From an uncultured Pseudohongiella sp. (GTDB lineage Bacteria; Pseudomonadota; Gammaproteobacteria; Pseudomonadales; Pseudohongiellaceae), in assembly GCA_902597095.1 (NCBI GenBank), contig CACJWK010000003.1, positions 62,001-126,000 on the forward strand: a stretch of DNA of 64,000 nt, given 5' to 3'. Shown in pieces: positions 5,108 to 52,085 of this stretch; the first letter of the stretch is position 1, and each line of letters begins with the position of its first letter. Both the position numbers and the translations under genes were made by a program. The notes under the pieces were generated by a model. It ran no database searches. It saw only the letters and a list, made by a program, of their open reading frames with translations, and was not told the origin of the DNA.

Positions 5108-5203
5108 TGGCGGAAGAGGCAGGAGTCGAACCCACCAAGCCTGCTATAAACAGACCTCACCGGGTTTGAAGTCCGGGCACCCCACCGGGGATGATACTCT
5201 TCC
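5108..5203 (-). tRNA. selC: tRNA-Sec (anticodon UCA)
   Basis: Read on the minus strand, the 96-base gene begins GGAAGAGT, carries TCA in the anticodon loop (5169-5167, flanked by CCGGAC and AACCCGG), has the long variable arm typical of tRNA-Sec, a GGTTCGACTCC T-loop segment and ends in GCCTCTTCCGCCA, with an encoded CCA. The extended acceptor stem and large variable arm distinguish it from opal suppressors. It delivers selenocysteine at UGA codons with SelA, SelB and SelD. Its 3' end faces the AT-rich accessory stretch. selC is a known integration site for islands in other gammaproteobacteria. Confidence 0.95.
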
Positions 5204-5253
5204 GACACGAAGTGTATCACAGGCCTGACCACGCTGTGGAGTGACCCGGCCAG

Positions 5254-12483: not shown

Positions 12484-13917
12484 ATGCCTTCATCAACTGC
12501 CGCCAGCTACTCGCTTTTCTTGAAAAAATCCTGCCCGACCTGCGAACTGATCGGGCCTGTCGCCAAACTGCTGTCCGAACACCTCGGCAGCCGACTGTCT
12601 GTTTATATTCAGGATGACATGTCTTTCCTCGAAGGAATTGCCCAGCGGATTGACGACGGCGAGTTAGAACAATCCTACCGGCAGAACATAGAGATCGTGC
12701 CAACCCTGATCCGTCATGATGAAGACGAACAGCGCATCGTCGGTTGGGACAAGCAGCAGTGGCAGGAGTTTACCGGCATTCCCGAGCTGGGAGCCGAGCT
12801 AATCGATTTCAAACCGGGCTGCGGCTCTCTGACCGAAGACCCTGGAATGGCCGAAAAGCTGGCCGCCAAATTTGACAGTCAAAAACTCAAAGCACGACGT
12901 ATCCAGATTGCCGACGCTGAAGACGACATGGAGGCCTGCTTCGACCGCGGTTGGTCAGACGGCCTGCCTGTCGTTCCGCCGACGCCTGTGCGGGTCATGC
13001 GAATGCTGGCCGGAACCGAACTGGGAGCCGATGAGCTGATCGGCATCGTGCCACCGGACAACATCCCCTGCAGCGTCGAGAAAGTGGCGATCAATGCCGT
13101 CATGGCCGGTTGTAAGCCCGAATATTTCCCGACCGTCATTGCCGTTGTAAGAGCTGCACTGCAGGATCGCTTCTGCATGCATGGCCTGCTGTGTACCACC
13201 TATTTCTCATCACCTGTTGTGATCGTTAACGGTCCTGAAAGCAGACATATCGGCATGAATTCAGGGGGCAATGCACTGGGTCAGGGCAACCGCGCCAATG
13301 CAACCATCGGCAGAGCTCTGCAGCTGCTGATAAGAAATGTCGGAGGCGGCAAACCCGGCGGCATCGACCGGGCGACCCTCGGAAATCCCGGCAAATACAC
13401 CTTTTGCTTTGCGGAAGATGAGTCAGAAGACGCGTGGTCTACACTTGCCATGGATCAGGGATACTCGCGCGAGGAATCCGTAGTCAGCCTGTTCGCGGGT
13501 GACGGCGTGCAGCCCATTCTGGATCAGCTGTCGCGGACTCCTGAATCGCTGGCGAAAAGCATGGCTTCCAGCCTGCGATCCGTCGTACATGTTAAAAAGT
13601 TCGGTCTGGCCGATGCCGTGCTCGTGGTATGCCCTGAACACAGACGGGTGCTGCGAATGAACGGATGGCACAAGCAGGATTTACTGCAGGCCATTCACGA
13701 CGAACTGGTTACCCCAGGCGCTGAGCTCGTCAGCGGGACCGGCGGCATCGCGGAGGGCATGCCGGACAGACTCAAAGGCAAATTACTGAGTAAATTCAGG
13801 GAAGATGGCCTGCATATTGTTACTGCTGGCGGCACGGCCGGCATGTTTTCGGCCATCATCAGCGGCTGGGTGGCTTCCGGAGAAAGAGGCAGTCAACTTG
13901 TCTCTCAACGCATTTAA
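12484..13917 (+). CDS. Thioredoxin-fold domain fused to a conserved domain; partner of the UGSC selenoprotein
   Basis: The 477-residue cytoplasmic protein has two parts. Residues about 8-100 look like a thioredoxin/glutaredoxin fold with a C-P-T-C active site (Cys17, Cys20), a cis-proline-like segment (IVPTLI) and W-D-x-x-Q-W. Residues about 145-470 form a large domain with strongly conserved-looking motifs: GWSDGLPVVPPT, NAVMAGCKPEYFP, NSGGNALGQGNRANATIGRA, and late glycine-rich GTGGIAEGMP and TAGGTAGMFS. I recall similar 'DGLPVVPPT' proteins encoded next to UGSC-family proteins in actinobacteria and other phyla, without a known reaction. It precedes the selenoprotein gene by 14 bases. A role in reducing the Sec/Cys protein is a reasonable inference, not shown. 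Confidence 0.7.
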   Translation: MPSSTAASYSLFLKKSCPTCELIGPVAKLLSEHLGSRLSVYIQDDMSFLEGIAQRIDDGELEQSYRQNIEIVPTLIRHDEDEQRIVGWDKQQWQEFTGIPELGAELIDFKPGCGSLTEDPGMAEKLAAKFDSQKLKARRIQIADAEDDMEACFDRGWSDGLPVVPPTPVRVMRMLAGTELGADELIGIVPPDNIPCSVEKVAINAVMAGCKPEYFPTVIAVVRAALQDRFCMHGLLCTTYFSSPVVIVNGPESRHIGMNSGGNALGQGNRANATIGRALQLLIRNVGGGKPGGIDRATLGNPGKYTFCFAEDESEDAWSTLAMDQGYSREESVVSLFAGDGVQPILDQLSRTPESLAKSMASSLRSVVHVKKFGLADAVLVVCPEHRRVLRMNGWHKQDLLQAIHDELVTPGAELVSGTGGIAEGMPDRLKGKLLSKFREDGLHIVTAGGTAGMFSAIISGWVASGERGSQLVSQRI

Positions 13918-13931
13918 AAATGGAGACTCAA

Positions 13932-14453
13932 ATGAGCACTATGATGATGCTGGACCCGACCAGCGAACACCGCCCGGCGGAACGACAACTTCTGCCTCGC
14001 CTGAAAACACTGAGTGAAACAACCGTTGGTCTGTTGGATATTTCCAAACCACGCGGCAAGGAATTTCTCGATGAGGTCCAGGTCGAACTTGAAGCGTTGG
14101 GGGCGACAGTACTCAGGTACGCCAAGCCGACATTCGCTCGTGTGGCACCCAAAGAGCTTTACCAGCGGATCAGCAGTGAATGCGATGCCGTCATTGAAGG
14201 GCTGGCCGACTGAGGCTCATGTACCTCGTGCAGTTTGCATGACATCATGGATCTTGAAAGTCGCGGCATTCCCGCCGGATTCGTTGCCTCTTCTGAATTT
14301 ATACAGGCAGCAGAAGCGCAGGGAAATTCCCTGGGCATCCACCCTAAAAGCGTATTCGTTCCGCATCCTATTCAGGACAGGACGGATGACGAGATGAAAG
14401 AATTGGCCAGAAATGCGATTGAGCAGGTCTTGCAACTCGTGGTCGAAAATTAG
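13932..14453 (+). CDS. UGSC-type selenoprotein with in-frame UGA (selenocysteine)
   Basis: The start at ATG 13932 follows GGAG by six bases; the in-frame ATG at 13920 has no such site. Translating the TGA at 14211-14213 as Sec gives a 173-residue protein with Sec94 in the motif U-G-S-C-T-S-C, so Sec94, Cys97 and Cys100 are available for redox chemistry. Upstream are the family-like segments TVGLLDISKPRGKEFLDEV, and 'CDAVIEGLAD' just before the Sec. Downstream the frame continues without stop (HDIMDLESRGIPAGFV) to TAG. Both halves would be orphan fragments if TGA were a stop. This matches my knowledge of the UGSC family, which has Sec or Cys at this site and no established function. A SECIS-like hairpin lies at 14226-14242. 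Confidence 0.9.
14226..14242 (+). promoter_or_regulatory. Bacterial SECIS-like hairpin for UGA at 14211-14213
   Basis: TCGTGCA (14226-14232) pairs with TGCATGA (14236-14242) as a seven-base stem (one G-U pair) around the loop GTT (14233-14235). The loop begins with G, and that G lies 20 bases after the UGA. Bacterial SECIS elements are short hairpins located just inside the coding sequence, with a guanosine among the first loop bases at roughly this distance, where SelB binds. The predicted fit is good; folding has not been computed. Confidence 0.7.
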
Positions 14454-14468
14454 TAACCGGAGCAAAAC

Positions 14469-15653
14469 ATGACAAAAGAAGCAGTAATCGTAGCAACCGC
14501 AAGAACACCTATCGGCAGAGCCTACAGAGGGGCTTTCAATGATACCGACGCCCCCACACTTGGCGGCCACGTGATTGCTGAAGCAGTCCGCCGGGCAGGG
14601 ATCGAGCCGGGTGAGGTCGATGACGTCATCATGGGCTGCGCCATGCAGCAAGGCACATCAGGCTACAACATCGGCAGAACGGCGGCTGTTGCAGCTGGGC
14701 TGCCGAGCTCAGTCTCGGGCATGAGCATAGATCGACAGTGCGCATCGGGCATGATGGCAATCTGTACTGCCGCCAAGCAGGTCGTCAATGACAACATGCC
14801 CATTGTGATCGGAGCAGGCCTGGACTCCATCAGTCTAGTGCAGAACGAACATCGCAACGGCTTCCGCGCACAAAGCCCCAGCGTCACTGACAAGTCCGAG
14901 CACGCTTATATGTCTATGCTGGAGACTGCCGAGGTTGTCGCCAAGCGCTACAACATCAGCCGCGAGCAGCAGGACGAATACGCGCTGCAAAGCCAGCAGC
15001 GGACCGCCGCCGCTCAGCAGGCAGGTGCCTTCGATGCAGAACTCGCACCTCTGCCTTCGAAAATGGTCTTCGTCGACAAAGAAACCAAAGAGCAGAGCGT
15101 CCACGATGTGCATCTCGAAAAAGACGAAGGCAACCGACCCACAACGACCCTTGAAGGGCTGAACGGATTGAAGCCCGTATTCGAGGGCGGAGTTATTACC
15201 GCGGGAAATGCCAGTCAGTTGTCTGATGGTGCCTCTGCTTCCGTAGTGATGGACAGCAAACTGGCCGAGCAGAAAGGCCTGAATCCGCTCGGTGCCTATC
15301 GGGGCATGGCAGTTGCCGGAGTCGAACCTGATGAAATGGGCATTGGCCCGGTTAAAGCCGTCCCGAAACTGCTGGAGCGCTTCAATCTGTCGATGGATGA
15401 CATTGGCCTGTGGGAGCTTAATGAAGCGTTTGCCGTACAGGTAATCCACTGCCGGGACGAACTGGGGATACCCAACGAACTGCTGAATGTTAATGGTGGC
15501 GCGATTTCAATTGGCCACCCGTACGGTATGAGTGGCGCTAGAATGGTCGGTCACGCACTGATCGAGGGTAAGCGCCGGGGCGCGAAATACGTCGTCTGCA
15601 CCATGTGCGTTGGCGGGGGCATGGGTGCTGCCGGACTTTTCCAAGTTTACTAA
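14469..15653 (+). CDS. Thiolase-family acetyl-CoA acyltransferase
   Basis: The 394-residue protein has the complete thiolase signature: nucleophilic Cys in DRQCASGMM (Cys91), N[13 protein letters not shown] and the late C-x-x-G-G-G-M-G motif. Length and motifs fit biosynthetic or degradative acetyl-CoA C-acyltransferases. It starts 15 bases after the selenoprotein stop, with CCGGAGC upstream of its ATG, so it appears to be the last gene of the UGSC operon; a strong hairpin follows 12 bases after the stop. It catalyses either condensation or thiolytic cleavage of 3-ketoacyl-CoA; which one cannot be read from sequence. Confidence 0.9.
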
Positions 15654-49826: not shown

Positions 49827-52085
49827 ATGAATATCAGCCCGATCGTCAAACACTTGGTACTGATCGGTGGCGGCCACAGTCATCTGGCGGTACTTCGCCA
49901 GCTCGGCATGCACCCCGTGCCCGGCCTGGCGGTGACACTGATCACCCGAGAGGTCGTGACCCCGTACTCCGGATCATTGCCTGCGCATCTTGTCGGTCAC
50001 TACAACCGAGACCTGATGCACATTGATTTGCGCCCACTGGCACAATTCGCTGGCGCGCGCTTGATTCAGTCAGAAGTCGCAGAGATCAATCTAAACGACC
50101 GAAGCATCAAGCTCGGTAATCGGCCAGATATTCCCTTCGATTGTCTGTCACTGAACATCGGCTCACGCCCTGACAGCGCATTGATTACCGGAGCTACTGA
50201 TCACGCGCTGGCAGTGAAACCTATCGACAGGTTTCTTGGGAAGTGGGAATCCATCAAACAGCAGGCCAGCACCGCGATGGCAGCAGGCCGTGACTACAGG
50301 CTGGCTATCGTTGGCGGTGGTCCCGCCAGTGTGGAGCTGGCTTTCGCCTCGCAAATTGCGATTGATCCGGTCGAAGGTGGAAACAAACAAGCCCACGGGC
50401 GACTGCAGATCTGTCTCGTCAGCGCAGGCCATCAATTGCTGTCAGGACATAACGCCAGAAGCCGGGAGTTTGCCCGGCAGGAACTCGTGCGCCGGGGCAT
50501 TGAAATCCGCTTTGGCAGTCGCGTCGACCGCTTTGACAAAAACAGGCTCGTGCTGACGGATGGCACGGAACTAAAGTGCGATTCGGCAATTTATGCAACC
50601 GGAGCAAGCCTGCCGGAATGGCCGTTTCAGTGCGGACTCGCAAAGAGTGAAGATGGGTTCATTGAGGTCGGCCCGACGCTGCAGACCACAAGCCACGACT
50701 TTGTCTTTGCGGCCGGTGATGCCGCCACCATGTGCAACGAACCAAGACCGAAATCCGGTGTCTATGCGGTGCGTCAGGGGAAAATCCTGGCAGAAAACTT
50801 GCGCCGTTTTGTCACCGGTCGATCACTCAAGCGCTACTTCCCGCAAAAAAAGACGCTGGCCCTCATCAGCATGGGCAACAAGTCGGCTATCGCCACCCGT
50901 GGCGAATGGTTTTACCAGGGTGCCAGCATGTGGCGACTTAAAGACACTATCGACCGGCGCTTCCTGAAAAAATACTCAGAACTGCCTCAAATGGCCGTAG
51001 AGCTAAACATCGCGCCCGGGCTACTGGACCAACAGGCCCAGACCAAGCTGCGCAATCATGCTATGCGCTGCGCCGGGTGCGGGGCAAAAGTCGCCAGCAG
51101 CGTGCTGGAAGACGTGCTCAGCGAGCTACCCGAATTCAAAAGGGACGATGTACTGAACGAATCGGGTGGCGCTGAAGATGCGTCACGTATTCAACTGTCA
51201 GACGGACGAATACTCCTGCAGAGCCTCGACTTTATCAAAGCATTTACCCGCGATCCGTTCCTGTTCGGCAAAATCGCAACCAATCACAGTTTGAGCGATA
51301 TCTATGCCATGGGAGTGCAGGCCCACTCTGCTCTGGCTCTGGTCGGGCTGCCGTTCGCGGAGAGGAAGTACAGCAGGCAGCAGTTGCGGGAACTCATGCT
51401 TGGCTGCGCTGAGGCACTGGAAGAAAATGACTGTAGCCTGATCGGCGGGCATTCGGCGGAAGCCGAACAATTGCAATTCGGACTGGCCGTCAATGGCTTT
51501 GCAGCTCCGGAAACTATCCTCACAAAAAGCAACCTCAAAATTGGGGATGCACTGATACTCACCAGACCACTGGGTTCCGGAACCCTGCTTGCTGCTGATA
51601 TGCGCTATCAGGCGCGCCATGAATGGATGGACGCTCTCATGCAGAGCATGCTCAGCTCGAATCGGAAAGCATCCGAAATTTCTGTGACACATGCTGCCCA
51701 TGCCTGCACAGATATCACCGGCTTTGGGCTGCTGGGTCATCTGCTGGAAATGCTGGCAGAAAATGATATAGGCGCGACTCTGTTTCTTGAACAGATTCCG
51801 ACTTTTTCAGGGACACTGGCGACCCTCGGCAGAGGCATAGTCAGTTCACTTCACGCCGACAACCAATTGAACGCGGCCCGAATCAGCAACCAGACAGAAT
51901 TTCAGAATCACGAGCTTTTTCCCGTACTGTTTGACCCGCAAACCGCTGGCGGACTGTTGATCAGCCTTCCCCGTTCCCGGGCCGAGGACTGCCTGAAAAT
52001 GCTGCTTGCAACCGGTCACGAGCGGGCTGCAATGGTCGGCGAAATCACCGAAACAGAAGAAGCCGGCACGGTAACCCTGTCCTGA
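49827..52085 (+). CDS. selD: Selenide, water dikinase (SelD) fused to an FAD/NAD(P) oxidoreductase
   Basis: The 752-residue protein has two domains. Residues about 1-380 are a pyridine-nucleotide-disulfide-type oxidoreductase with FAD motif V-L-I-G-G-G-H-S-H-L and NAD motif L-A-I-V-G-G-G-P-A-S-V-E, plus a C-terminal F-A-A-G-D-A-A signature. Residues about 405-752 are SelD: A-G-C-G-A-K-V with catalytic Cys418 and Lys421 (Cys, not Sec), N-H-S-L-S-D-I-Y-A-M-G, G-G-H-S-A-E and L-F-D-P-Q-T-A-G-G-L-L. SelD makes selenophosphate for tRNA-Sec; the oxidoreductase half, known in some marine bacteria and algae, may supply reduced selenium. It supports an active Sec pathway with selC in this window. Confidence 0.95.
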   Translation: MNISPIVKHLVLIGGGHSHLAVLRQLGMHPVPGLAVTLITREVVTPYSGSLPAHLVGHYNRDLMHIDLRPLAQFAGARLIQSEVAEINLNDRSIKLGNRPDIPFDCLSLNIGSRPDSALITGATDHALAVKPIDRFLGKWESIKQQASTAMAAGRDYRLAIVGGGPASVELAFASQIAIDPVEGGNKQAHGRLQICLVSAGHQLLSGHNARSREFARQELVRRGIEIRFGSRVDRFDKNRLVLTDGTELKCDSAIYATGASLPEWPFQCGLAKSEDGFIEVGPTLQTTSHDFVFAAGDAATMCNEPRPKSGVYAVRQGKILAENLRRFVTGRSLKRYFPQKKTLALISMGNKSAIATRGEWFYQGASMWRLKDTIDRRFLKKYSELPQMAVELNIAPGLLDQQAQTKLRNHAMRCAGCGAKVASSVLEDVLSELPEFKRDDVLNESGGAEDASRIQLSDGRILLQSLDFIKAFTRDPFLFGKIATNHSLSDIYAMGVQAHSALALVGLPFAERKYSRQQLRELMLGCAEALEENDCSLIGGHSAEAEQLQFGLAVNGFAAPETILTKSNLKIGDALILTRPLGSGTLLAADMRYQARHEWMDALMQSMLSSNRKASEISVTHAAHACTDITGFGLLGHLLEMLAENDIGATLFLEQIPTFSGTLATLGRGIVSSLHADNQLNAARISNQTEFQNHELFPVLFDPQTAGGLLISLPRSRAEDCLKMLLATGHERAAMVGEITETEEAGTVTLS

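What the first reader, a model, noticed from the sequence alone, without database searches (positions are those of the whole stretch)
13932..14453. Split UGSC-type selenoprotein gene with in-frame UGA and SECIS-like hairpin
Two same-frame pieces join across TGA 14211-14213 into a 173-residue protein with U-G-S-C-T-S-C. The loop of a seven-base hairpin starts with G 20 bases after the UGA. A standard gene caller would report two unrelated short genes. UGSC proteins are known mainly from metagenomes and have no assigned function, so this is a clear target.
Basis: partly seen in the sequence, partly recalled or inferred. Interest (0 to 1): 0.85.

Follow-up and report, generated by a model that had tools for sequence, protein, structure and literature searches.

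The report
UGSC selenoprotein with a thioredoxin-bearing partner
A bacterial gene that looks cut in two by a stop codon is really one gene using the rare amino acid selenocysteine, and it sits beside a thioredoxin-carrying partner gene that in other bacteria also appears to use selenocysteine, which gives this long-unexplained protein family a testable job.

Summary
Window 13932-14453 reads through TGA 14211-14213 into a 173-residue protein over NCBIfam's UGSC cut-off. Among 78 readable relatives in named genomes the codon is TGA in 76, TAG in one (its tRNA-Sec has the matching CUA anticodon) and TGC in one (no tRNA-Sec found). selA, selB, selD and tRNA-Sec lie on the window's contig. It is a member of the known UGSC selenoprotein family.
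New here: UGSC sits beside, or fused to, one partner domain in almost every locus examined. In the window the partner (12484-13917) has an N-terminal thioredoxin domain. In one betaproteobacterial family the partner is itself a predicted selenoprotein: TGA replaces a conserved Cys in 38 of 43 near-full-length copies, followed by its own conserved hairpin. UGSC occurs in all 74 genomes searched there, 1 to at least 40 copies each, tracking the partner's copy number (r = 0.98, 55 genomes).
The UGSC model alternates strands and helices and shows weak profile similarity to the Sec domain of glycine reductase GrdB. I infer a thioredoxin-fed two-component seleno-reductase, probably acting on small carboxylates. 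The substrate is unknown; nothing was tested at the bench.

The parts
13932..14453 (+). UGSC-family selenoprotein gene, 173 residues with Sec at 94 (UGSCTSC)
   Evidence: start supported by GGAG at 13922-13925
14211..14213 (+). UGA codon read as selenocysteine (Sec94)
   Evidence: TGA 76, TAG 1, TGC 1 of 78 readable relatives; the TAG relative's genome has a tRNA-Sec with CUA anticodon
14217..14250 (+). bacterial SECIS-type stem-loop; upper stem 14226-14242, loop GUU 14233-14235
   Evidence: criteria seen in passages of PMC13188914
12484..13917 (+). partner gene, 477 aa: thioredoxin-like domain plus the domain fused to UGSC in other genomes
   Evidence: ends 14 bases before the UGSC start
12484..12780 (+). 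thioredoxin-like domain of the partner (residues 1-99) with CPTC at residues 17-20
   Evidence: Foldseek and VIA-align matches; TIGR01068 in 45 of 63 members of A3 at E<=1, best 2.9e-5, though not in the window's own protein
12820..12822 (+). codon of conserved Cys113 (PGCGS) of the partner; TGA at this codon in many betaproteobacteria
   Evidence: 61 Cys and 2 TGA in the 63 rows of A3; 38 of 43 TGA in the family of L093's genome
12102..12458 (+). small protein, 118 aa, just upstream, perhaps same operon
   Evidence: homologue upstream in 10 loci, window counted; no Pfam or NCBIfam match at E<=0.001
14469..15653 (+). thiolase, 15 bases downstream, probably same operon
   Evidence: same gene family directly downstream of UGSC in 10 of the 68 other loci with a downstream ORF
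5109..5204 (-). tRNA-Sec, anticodon UCA
   Evidence: ARAGORN; Rfam RF01852 65.3 bits over 5112-5203
49827..52085 (+). selD: 752-aa frame whose C-terminal part matches selD; the N-terminal part looks like an NADH-dehydrogenase-type fusion (recalled resemblance, not tested)
   Evidence: TIGR00476 289.7 bits over 51060-51977; frame

Best explanation
Shown by sequence: the locus encodes a UGSC selenoprotein with all parts needed for UGA decoding, next to a thioredoxin-bearing partner that accompanies UGSC almost everywhere examined. Inferred: the two proteins form a thioredoxin-fed, substrate-specific reductase. NADPH and thioredoxin reductase reduce thioredoxin (here the partner's own CPTC domain). 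Electrons pass through Cys113 (Sec113 in some betaproteobacteria) to Sec94 of UGSC, which forms a selenenylsulfide with Cys97 or Cys100 during turnover. Sec94 attacks a substrate held between UGSC and the partner's large domain and breaks a bond next to a carboxyl group, in the manner of GrdB/PrdB of glycine and proline reductase. In the window the product may feed the thiolase that is probably co-transcribed. Weakest steps: the substrate class and the electron path through residue 113.
For: Sec: codon and anticodon change together; tRNA-Sec in 67 of 80 genomes; selA, selB, selD, tRNA-Sec on the same contig. Pairing: UGSC in the same locus in 79 of 80 partner-chosen loci, adjacent in 71 of 74 measured; partner beside or fused in 21 of 21 UGSC-chosen loci (nine from one genome) and in 19 of 20 paralogue regions; copy numbers track, r = 0.979 over 55 genomes. 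Thioredoxin link: N-terminal Trx fold; separate trxB-trxA-partner-UGSC order in an Arthrobacter plasmid; trxB-like gene within about 6 kb in 6 of 21 UGSC-chosen loci. Residue 113 is only Cys or TGA wherever read: 63 rows and 42 loci. GrdB-like: 39 of 66 members match TIGR01917 and 36 of 66 GrdF at E<=0.01; both have UxxCxxC (GrdB motif as stated). Carboxylate link: TctC transporter receptors are 19 of 103 neighbours scanned.
Against: No biochemistry. GrdB similarity is weak: 0 of 66 members match Pfam GRDB at E<=0.01, scores are far below the Grd cut-offs, and hhalign against two PrdB-like proteins gave probability 13.7, E 0.002. TctC receptors are generally numerous in betaproteobacteria (recalled), so 19 of 103 has no proper baseline. 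Neighbours in the window's subfamily vary; of 47 scanned, 6 are selA, and thiolase and CoA-transferase appear once each. The partner's large domain had no clear fold match and was hardly tested by the search. trxB is near only 2 of 81 loci of the Trx-fused type, the window's among the 79 without. In a few loci UGSC is kilobases away from the partner (L085, L087) or was not found (L101).
Confidence: 0.58

Rival explanations
1. [quoted passage not shown]
For: Stated in PMC2398784 (passages); UxxC motif; the partner carries a Trx domain.
Against: The UGSC model (pLDDT 93.2) runs strand-helix five times with no two strands adjacent, and its listed structure matches are flavodoxin/Rossmann-like, though an unlisted fold is not excluded. 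Up to 40 paralogues per genome, tracking the partner, fit substrate diversity better than housekeeping.
Confidence: 0.15
2. The pair is a reductive detoxification or repair system (for example for halogenated, oxidised or sulfur compounds) rather than a catabolic carboxylate reductase.
For: A strong nucleophile with a Trx supply would suit reductive cleavage of xenobiotics (inference); 12 plasmid records hold UGSC, one of them beside IS elements.
Against: Neighbours of paralogues include carboxylate transporter receptors, amidohydrolases, CoA-transferases and amidases, and a thiolase in the window.
Confidence: 0.22
3. The TGA is an ordinary stop: a decayed gene or assembly error.
For: The standard code gives two separate ORFs.
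Against: TGA in 76 of 78 readable relatives, selection persists after it, conserved hairpin, full Sec machinery.
Confidence: 0.01

Closest known systems
UGSC family (seleno)protein, NF041046 / PF24696
   Same: Over both cut-offs; UGSC motif; Sec with a SECIS-type hairpin; in the literature since metagenome surveys.
   Different: The 2008 paper records a fusion with 'Unknown_1' (passages); in the passages seen no paper describes a two-gene unit, a Trx-bearing partner, or a Sec-containing partner.
Glycine reductase selenoprotein B (GrdB) and D-proline reductase PrdB (PF07355, TIGR01917/01918)
   Same: UxxCxxC motif (GrdB), weak repeated profile similarity around the Sec, thioredoxin or thioredoxin reductase genes alongside in some loci.
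   Different: Far below family cut-offs; a small domain with a different partner; no GRDB match at E<=0.001 in the window's genome.
Thioredoxin (TIGR01068)
   Same: Partner residues 4-99 have the fold and a CPTC motif.
   Different: Only the N-terminal fifth of the partner; no TIGR01068 match for the window's protein at E<=1.
UAG-decoded Sec in Geodermatophilaceae
   Same: The TAG relative L071 (Ca. Blastococcus massiliensis) with a CUA tRNA-Sec is a further case of what PMC5330540 reports, UGSC proteins included (passages).
   Different: Nothing; used here only as a test of the Sec position.

Membership tests
UGSC family (NF041046/PF24696) | Profile score over the curated cut-off | tested here: met
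   146.2 vs 125 bits; 146.5 vs 25 bits
UGSC family (NF041046/PF24696) | Sec or Cys at the motif position in relatives | tested here: met
   TGA 76, TAG 1, TGC 1 of 78 readable; 2 of 80 loci not readable
Selenoprotein | Sec machinery in the same genome | tested here: met
   selB, tRNA-Sec, selA, selD over their cut-offs
Bacterial SECIS model | 3-9 nt loop, G in first two loop bases, 4-16 bp stem, loop 16-37 nt after UGA, MFE <= -7.5 | tested here: met
   Loop GUU, 7 bp, 19 nt spacing; 40-base fold -11.4 kcal/mol, but the upper 19 bases alone only -7.1; criteria
Selenoprotein | Selenium present in the protein | not testable with these tools
   Needs 75Se labelling or mass spectrometry
GrdB/PrdB (PF07355, TIGR01917) | Family profile cut-off | tested here: not met
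   21.9 vs 602.2 bits for TIGR01917; 0 of 66 members match PF07355 at E<=0.01
GrdB/PrdB (PF07355, TIGR01917) | UxxCxxC motif | tested here: met
   Positions 94, 97 and 100 invariant in A2, Sec passed on as Cys; GrdB motif as given in PMC13188914
Thioredoxin-like fold (for UGSC) | Thioredoxin fold | tested here: inconclusive
   Strictly alternating strand-helix order in the model; no thioredoxin among listed matches, which is not an exclusion
Thioredoxin-like domain (for the partner) | Fold and CxxC | tested here: met
Thioredoxin TIGR01068 (for the partner) | Curated cut-off 96.8 bits | tested here: not met
   Window protein had no TIGR01068 hit at E<=1; L093's copy scored 12.9 bits

The most novel reading that the evidence does not exclude
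UGSC and the Trx-bearing partner belong to a large, unrecognised family of two-component, thioredoxin-fed seleno-reductases. Both subunits can carry Sec (Sec94 in UGSC, Sec113 in the partner, each with its own SECIS), and one betaproteobacterial family has multiplied the system to 40 or more copies in some genomes, each tuned to a different carboxylate.
Probability: 0.45. Interest if true: 0.82.

Novelty: new variant of a known kind. Interest (0 to 1): 0.62.

Why it matters
The UGSC gene itself is a plain new member of a known family; the variant is the two-gene unit. UGSC is one of the commoner selenoprotein families in aquatic metagenomes (255 Sec forms in GOS; 8.2% of selenoprotein genes in a larger set), yet the 2026 review says such proteins remain largely uncharacterised. 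Naming a partner, a likely electron source and a second Sec site turns an unknown redox protein into a defined two-protein assay. The Sec-type partner is absent from that review's table of 119 families, so gene callers may split it in these genomes. The copy-number expansion would give some betaproteobacteria unusually many selenoproteins.

Tried and rejected

Parts given of what was held: A2 took the window and 65 of the 77 UGSC references printed; A3 took the window and 62 of 80 partner genes (the other 18 were checked for stops, all open); A4 took 47 of 82 same-strand neighbours (of 140 in all); A6 took 103 of 128 neighbour ORFs. L124 was translated in a wrong frame, so its Sec/Cys state is not counted. 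In one search a strict motif missed 53 of 80 loci; A3 replaced it. In one search several loci were read in wrong or overlong frames; redid all 43. Rows dropped: the second UGSC copy of L059 (TGA) is left out of the 78; L101 (no UGSC found) and L049 (contig ends before the codon) are the two unreadable of 80. tRNA-Sec: I counted genomes with at least 60 bits. By Rfam's own cut-off would give 46 of 50 instead of 43. I read the best hit of each of the 7 others with ARAGORN: four tRNA-Ser, one Lys, one Trp, one no call, none Sec. The 13 of 80 without one are all titled MAG; their completeness was not measured, so absence, that of L089 included, may be missing sequence. Lists are cut; I read only the rows shown. 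The 54 UGSC readings are 52 distinct copies.

Full report
CHECK. Translation of 13932-14453 with TGA as Sec gives 173 residues and one UGA, at 14211-14213. The whole protein scores 146.2 bits against NCBIfam UGSC_fam (cut-off 125), the two halves alone 48.8 and 60.9; Pfam UGSC gives 146.5. The 7-bp hairpin with loop GUU starts its loop at base 20 after the UGA and meets the bacterial SECIS constraints seen in passages of PMC13188914.

SEC OR STOP. I searched named genomes with an alignment of the upstream partner (A1) and kept the best 80 loci. A UGSC domain was found in 79 of 80. Of these, 78 show the codon: TGA 76, TAG 1, TGC 1. The TAG locus (L071, Ca. Blastococcus massiliensis) lies in a genome whose tRNA-Sec has anticodon CTA, whereas the window's and the four other genomes examined have TCA. 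UAG-decoded UGSC in that bacterial family is already reported (PMC5330540, passages). The TGC locus (L089) keeps 5 of 8 stem pairs, no more than its codon null of 5.4, and its genome's best tRNA-Sec hit (49.2 bits, over Rfam's cut-off of 47) is a tRNA-Ser by ARAGORN; it is a MAG, so absence is not proof. tRNA-Sec at 60 bits or more was found in 43 of 50 and 24 of 30 genomes, 67 of 80 in all. In the window's own genome selA, selB and selD pass their cut-offs and, with tRNA-Sec, lie on the same contig as UGSC; tRNA-Sec and selD are inside the window. In wider samples, own genome included, UGSC is rare: 6 of 369 genomes of the class (14 of 15 matches with one TGA) and 5 of 398 of the phylum (5 of 6 over-cut-off matches with one TGA).

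PARTNER. The 477-aa gene ending 14 bases upstream has no Pfam or NCBIfam match at E<=0.001 (a weak TraF hit at 0.09). Its C-terminal domain is the one fused behind UGSC in other genomes, very probably the 'Unknown_1' domain of PMC2398784 (passages; identity with that alignment not tested). In 71 of the 74 loci measured the gap from partner to UGSC is -40 to 200 bases, median 30. Because those loci were chosen by the partner, I also checked loci chosen by UGSC: the partner is beside or fused in 21 of 21 (nine from one genome). Its first 99 residues have a thioredoxin fold with CPTC; 45 of 63 members match thioredoxin TIGR01068 at E<=1, best 2.9e-5, the window's not among them. In an Arthrobacter plasmid the same parts are separate genes in the order trxB, trxA, partner, UGSC. 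trxB-like genes are within about 6 kb in 6 of 21 UGSC-chosen loci, and in 2 of 81 of the Trx-fused type.

SECOND SELENOCYSTEINE. Two of the 80 partner genes (L087, L093) have a TGA where the other 61 rows of the 63-row alignment have Cys, PG-C-GS, residue 113. Searching 74 genomes of L093's family gave 43 with a full-length or near-full-length partner. All 43 were read: TGA at this codon in 37, Cys in 5; in one truncated copy (L190) the only TGA lies at the matching place but the motif was outside my search range, so I count 38 of 43. One of the 37 (L157) also has a TAA further down. A readable UGSC motif lay within the fetched flank in 32 of 43 and was Sec in all 32. Downstream of the partner's TGA is a hairpin, CTCG-A-GCC, loop CGGGGT, GGC-CGAG, with 20 bases between UGA and loop. 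All 7 pairs form in 35 of 36 distinct Sec sequences, against 4.4 of 7 for redrawn synonymous codons; the five Cys forms make 0 to 5. Two sequences keep a pair by a G-C to A-T change. Third codon positions are 0.83-1.0 fixed inside the hairpin and 0.47-0.78 before it; but two codons after it are also 0.94-0.97 fixed, and relatedness inflates all such counts. The table of 119 families in PMC13188914 (section 7, parts 1 and 2 of 3 read) has UGSC but nothing matching this protein, and NCBIfam gave only thioredoxin-type and stray matches. Paper searches behind the statement of novelty: all in open-licence PMC only.

EXPANSION. In those 74 genomes UGSC occurs in 74, with 1 to 40 matches, median 11; two genomes stand at 40, the number of candidates scored, so 40 is a lower bound. 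Of 52 distinct copies read in fetched loci (54 readings) all have Sec, one with motif UGSS; these loci came from the better-scoring matches. Of 20 paralogue regions 19 have the partner alongside; in the other the contig ends 481 bases past UGSC. Among 103 neighbour proteins of these regions 19 are TctC transporter receptors; others include amidohydrolases, CoA-transferases and amidases. An earlier survey lists 26 and 33 beside UGSC (PMC5029168, passage of a table; I take these as organisms and sequences).

FOLD AND KINSHIP. The UGSC model (pLDDT 93.2) alternates strand and helix five times, with Sec94 at the start of a helix; listed structural matches are flavodoxin/Rossmann-like. The published guess was a thioredoxin-like fold. 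Profile matches to the Sec-bearing end of GrdB are weak but repeated: 39 of 66 members for TIGR01917 (best 3.8e-5), 36 of 66 for GrdF (best 8e-6), 12 of 66 for TIGR01918; Pfam GRDB none of 66; hhalign with two PrdB-like proteins probability 13.7, E 0.002, Sec aligned with Sec. So it may work like GrdB; it is not filed as a GrdB.

MECHANISM. Shown: Sec gene, Sec machinery, near-constant partner, Trx domain, Cys/TGA interchange at residue 113. Inferred: electron flow from thioredoxin through residue 113 to Sec94, and reductive bond cleavage next to a carboxyl group. Unknown: substrate. In the window a thiolase follows 15 bases after UGSC, and a thiolase of the same cluster directly follows UGSC in 10 of 68 other loci with a downstream ORF, while in six selA does, so the operon context is not uniform.

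Noticed in passing
L087:6307-6309, L093:5338-5340, and L131-L160, L178-L190: The partner protein looks itself like a selenoprotein in one betaproteobacterial family: TGA at the Cys113 codon in 38 of 43, with a conserved hairpin 20 bases downstream.
   Followed up: yes
74 genomes of the family of L093's genome (G424, G429, G449-G520): UGSC in 74 of 74 genomes at 1 to at least 40 copies each, tracking the partner's copy number.
   Followed up: partly
window 5109-5204 (-) and 49827-52085 (+): tRNA-Sec and a selD fusion lie in the same window, selA and selB upstream on the same contig: a selenium gene neighbourhood.
   Followed up: partly
L071:7638-7640 and G369:C1:654657-654748: Ca. Blastococcus massiliensis uses UAG for Sec in UGSC with a CUA tRNA-Sec; ARAGORN calls it tRNA-Pyl.
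   Followed up: yes
L057, L058, L067, L073, L077, L084: selA directly follows UGSC, so UGSC may be a main reason these genomes keep Sec.
   Followed up: no
L021, L025-L032 (G332): One genome of the same class has nine UGSC genes in frame with the partner domain, seven of them with U-S-x-C instead of U-G-S-C.
   Followed up: partly
L120 (Acidovorax sp. T1 plasmid): A Sec-type UGSC fused to the partner domain sits on a plasmid typed as conjugative, near IS elements and a carboxylate-transporter gene.
   Followed up: no
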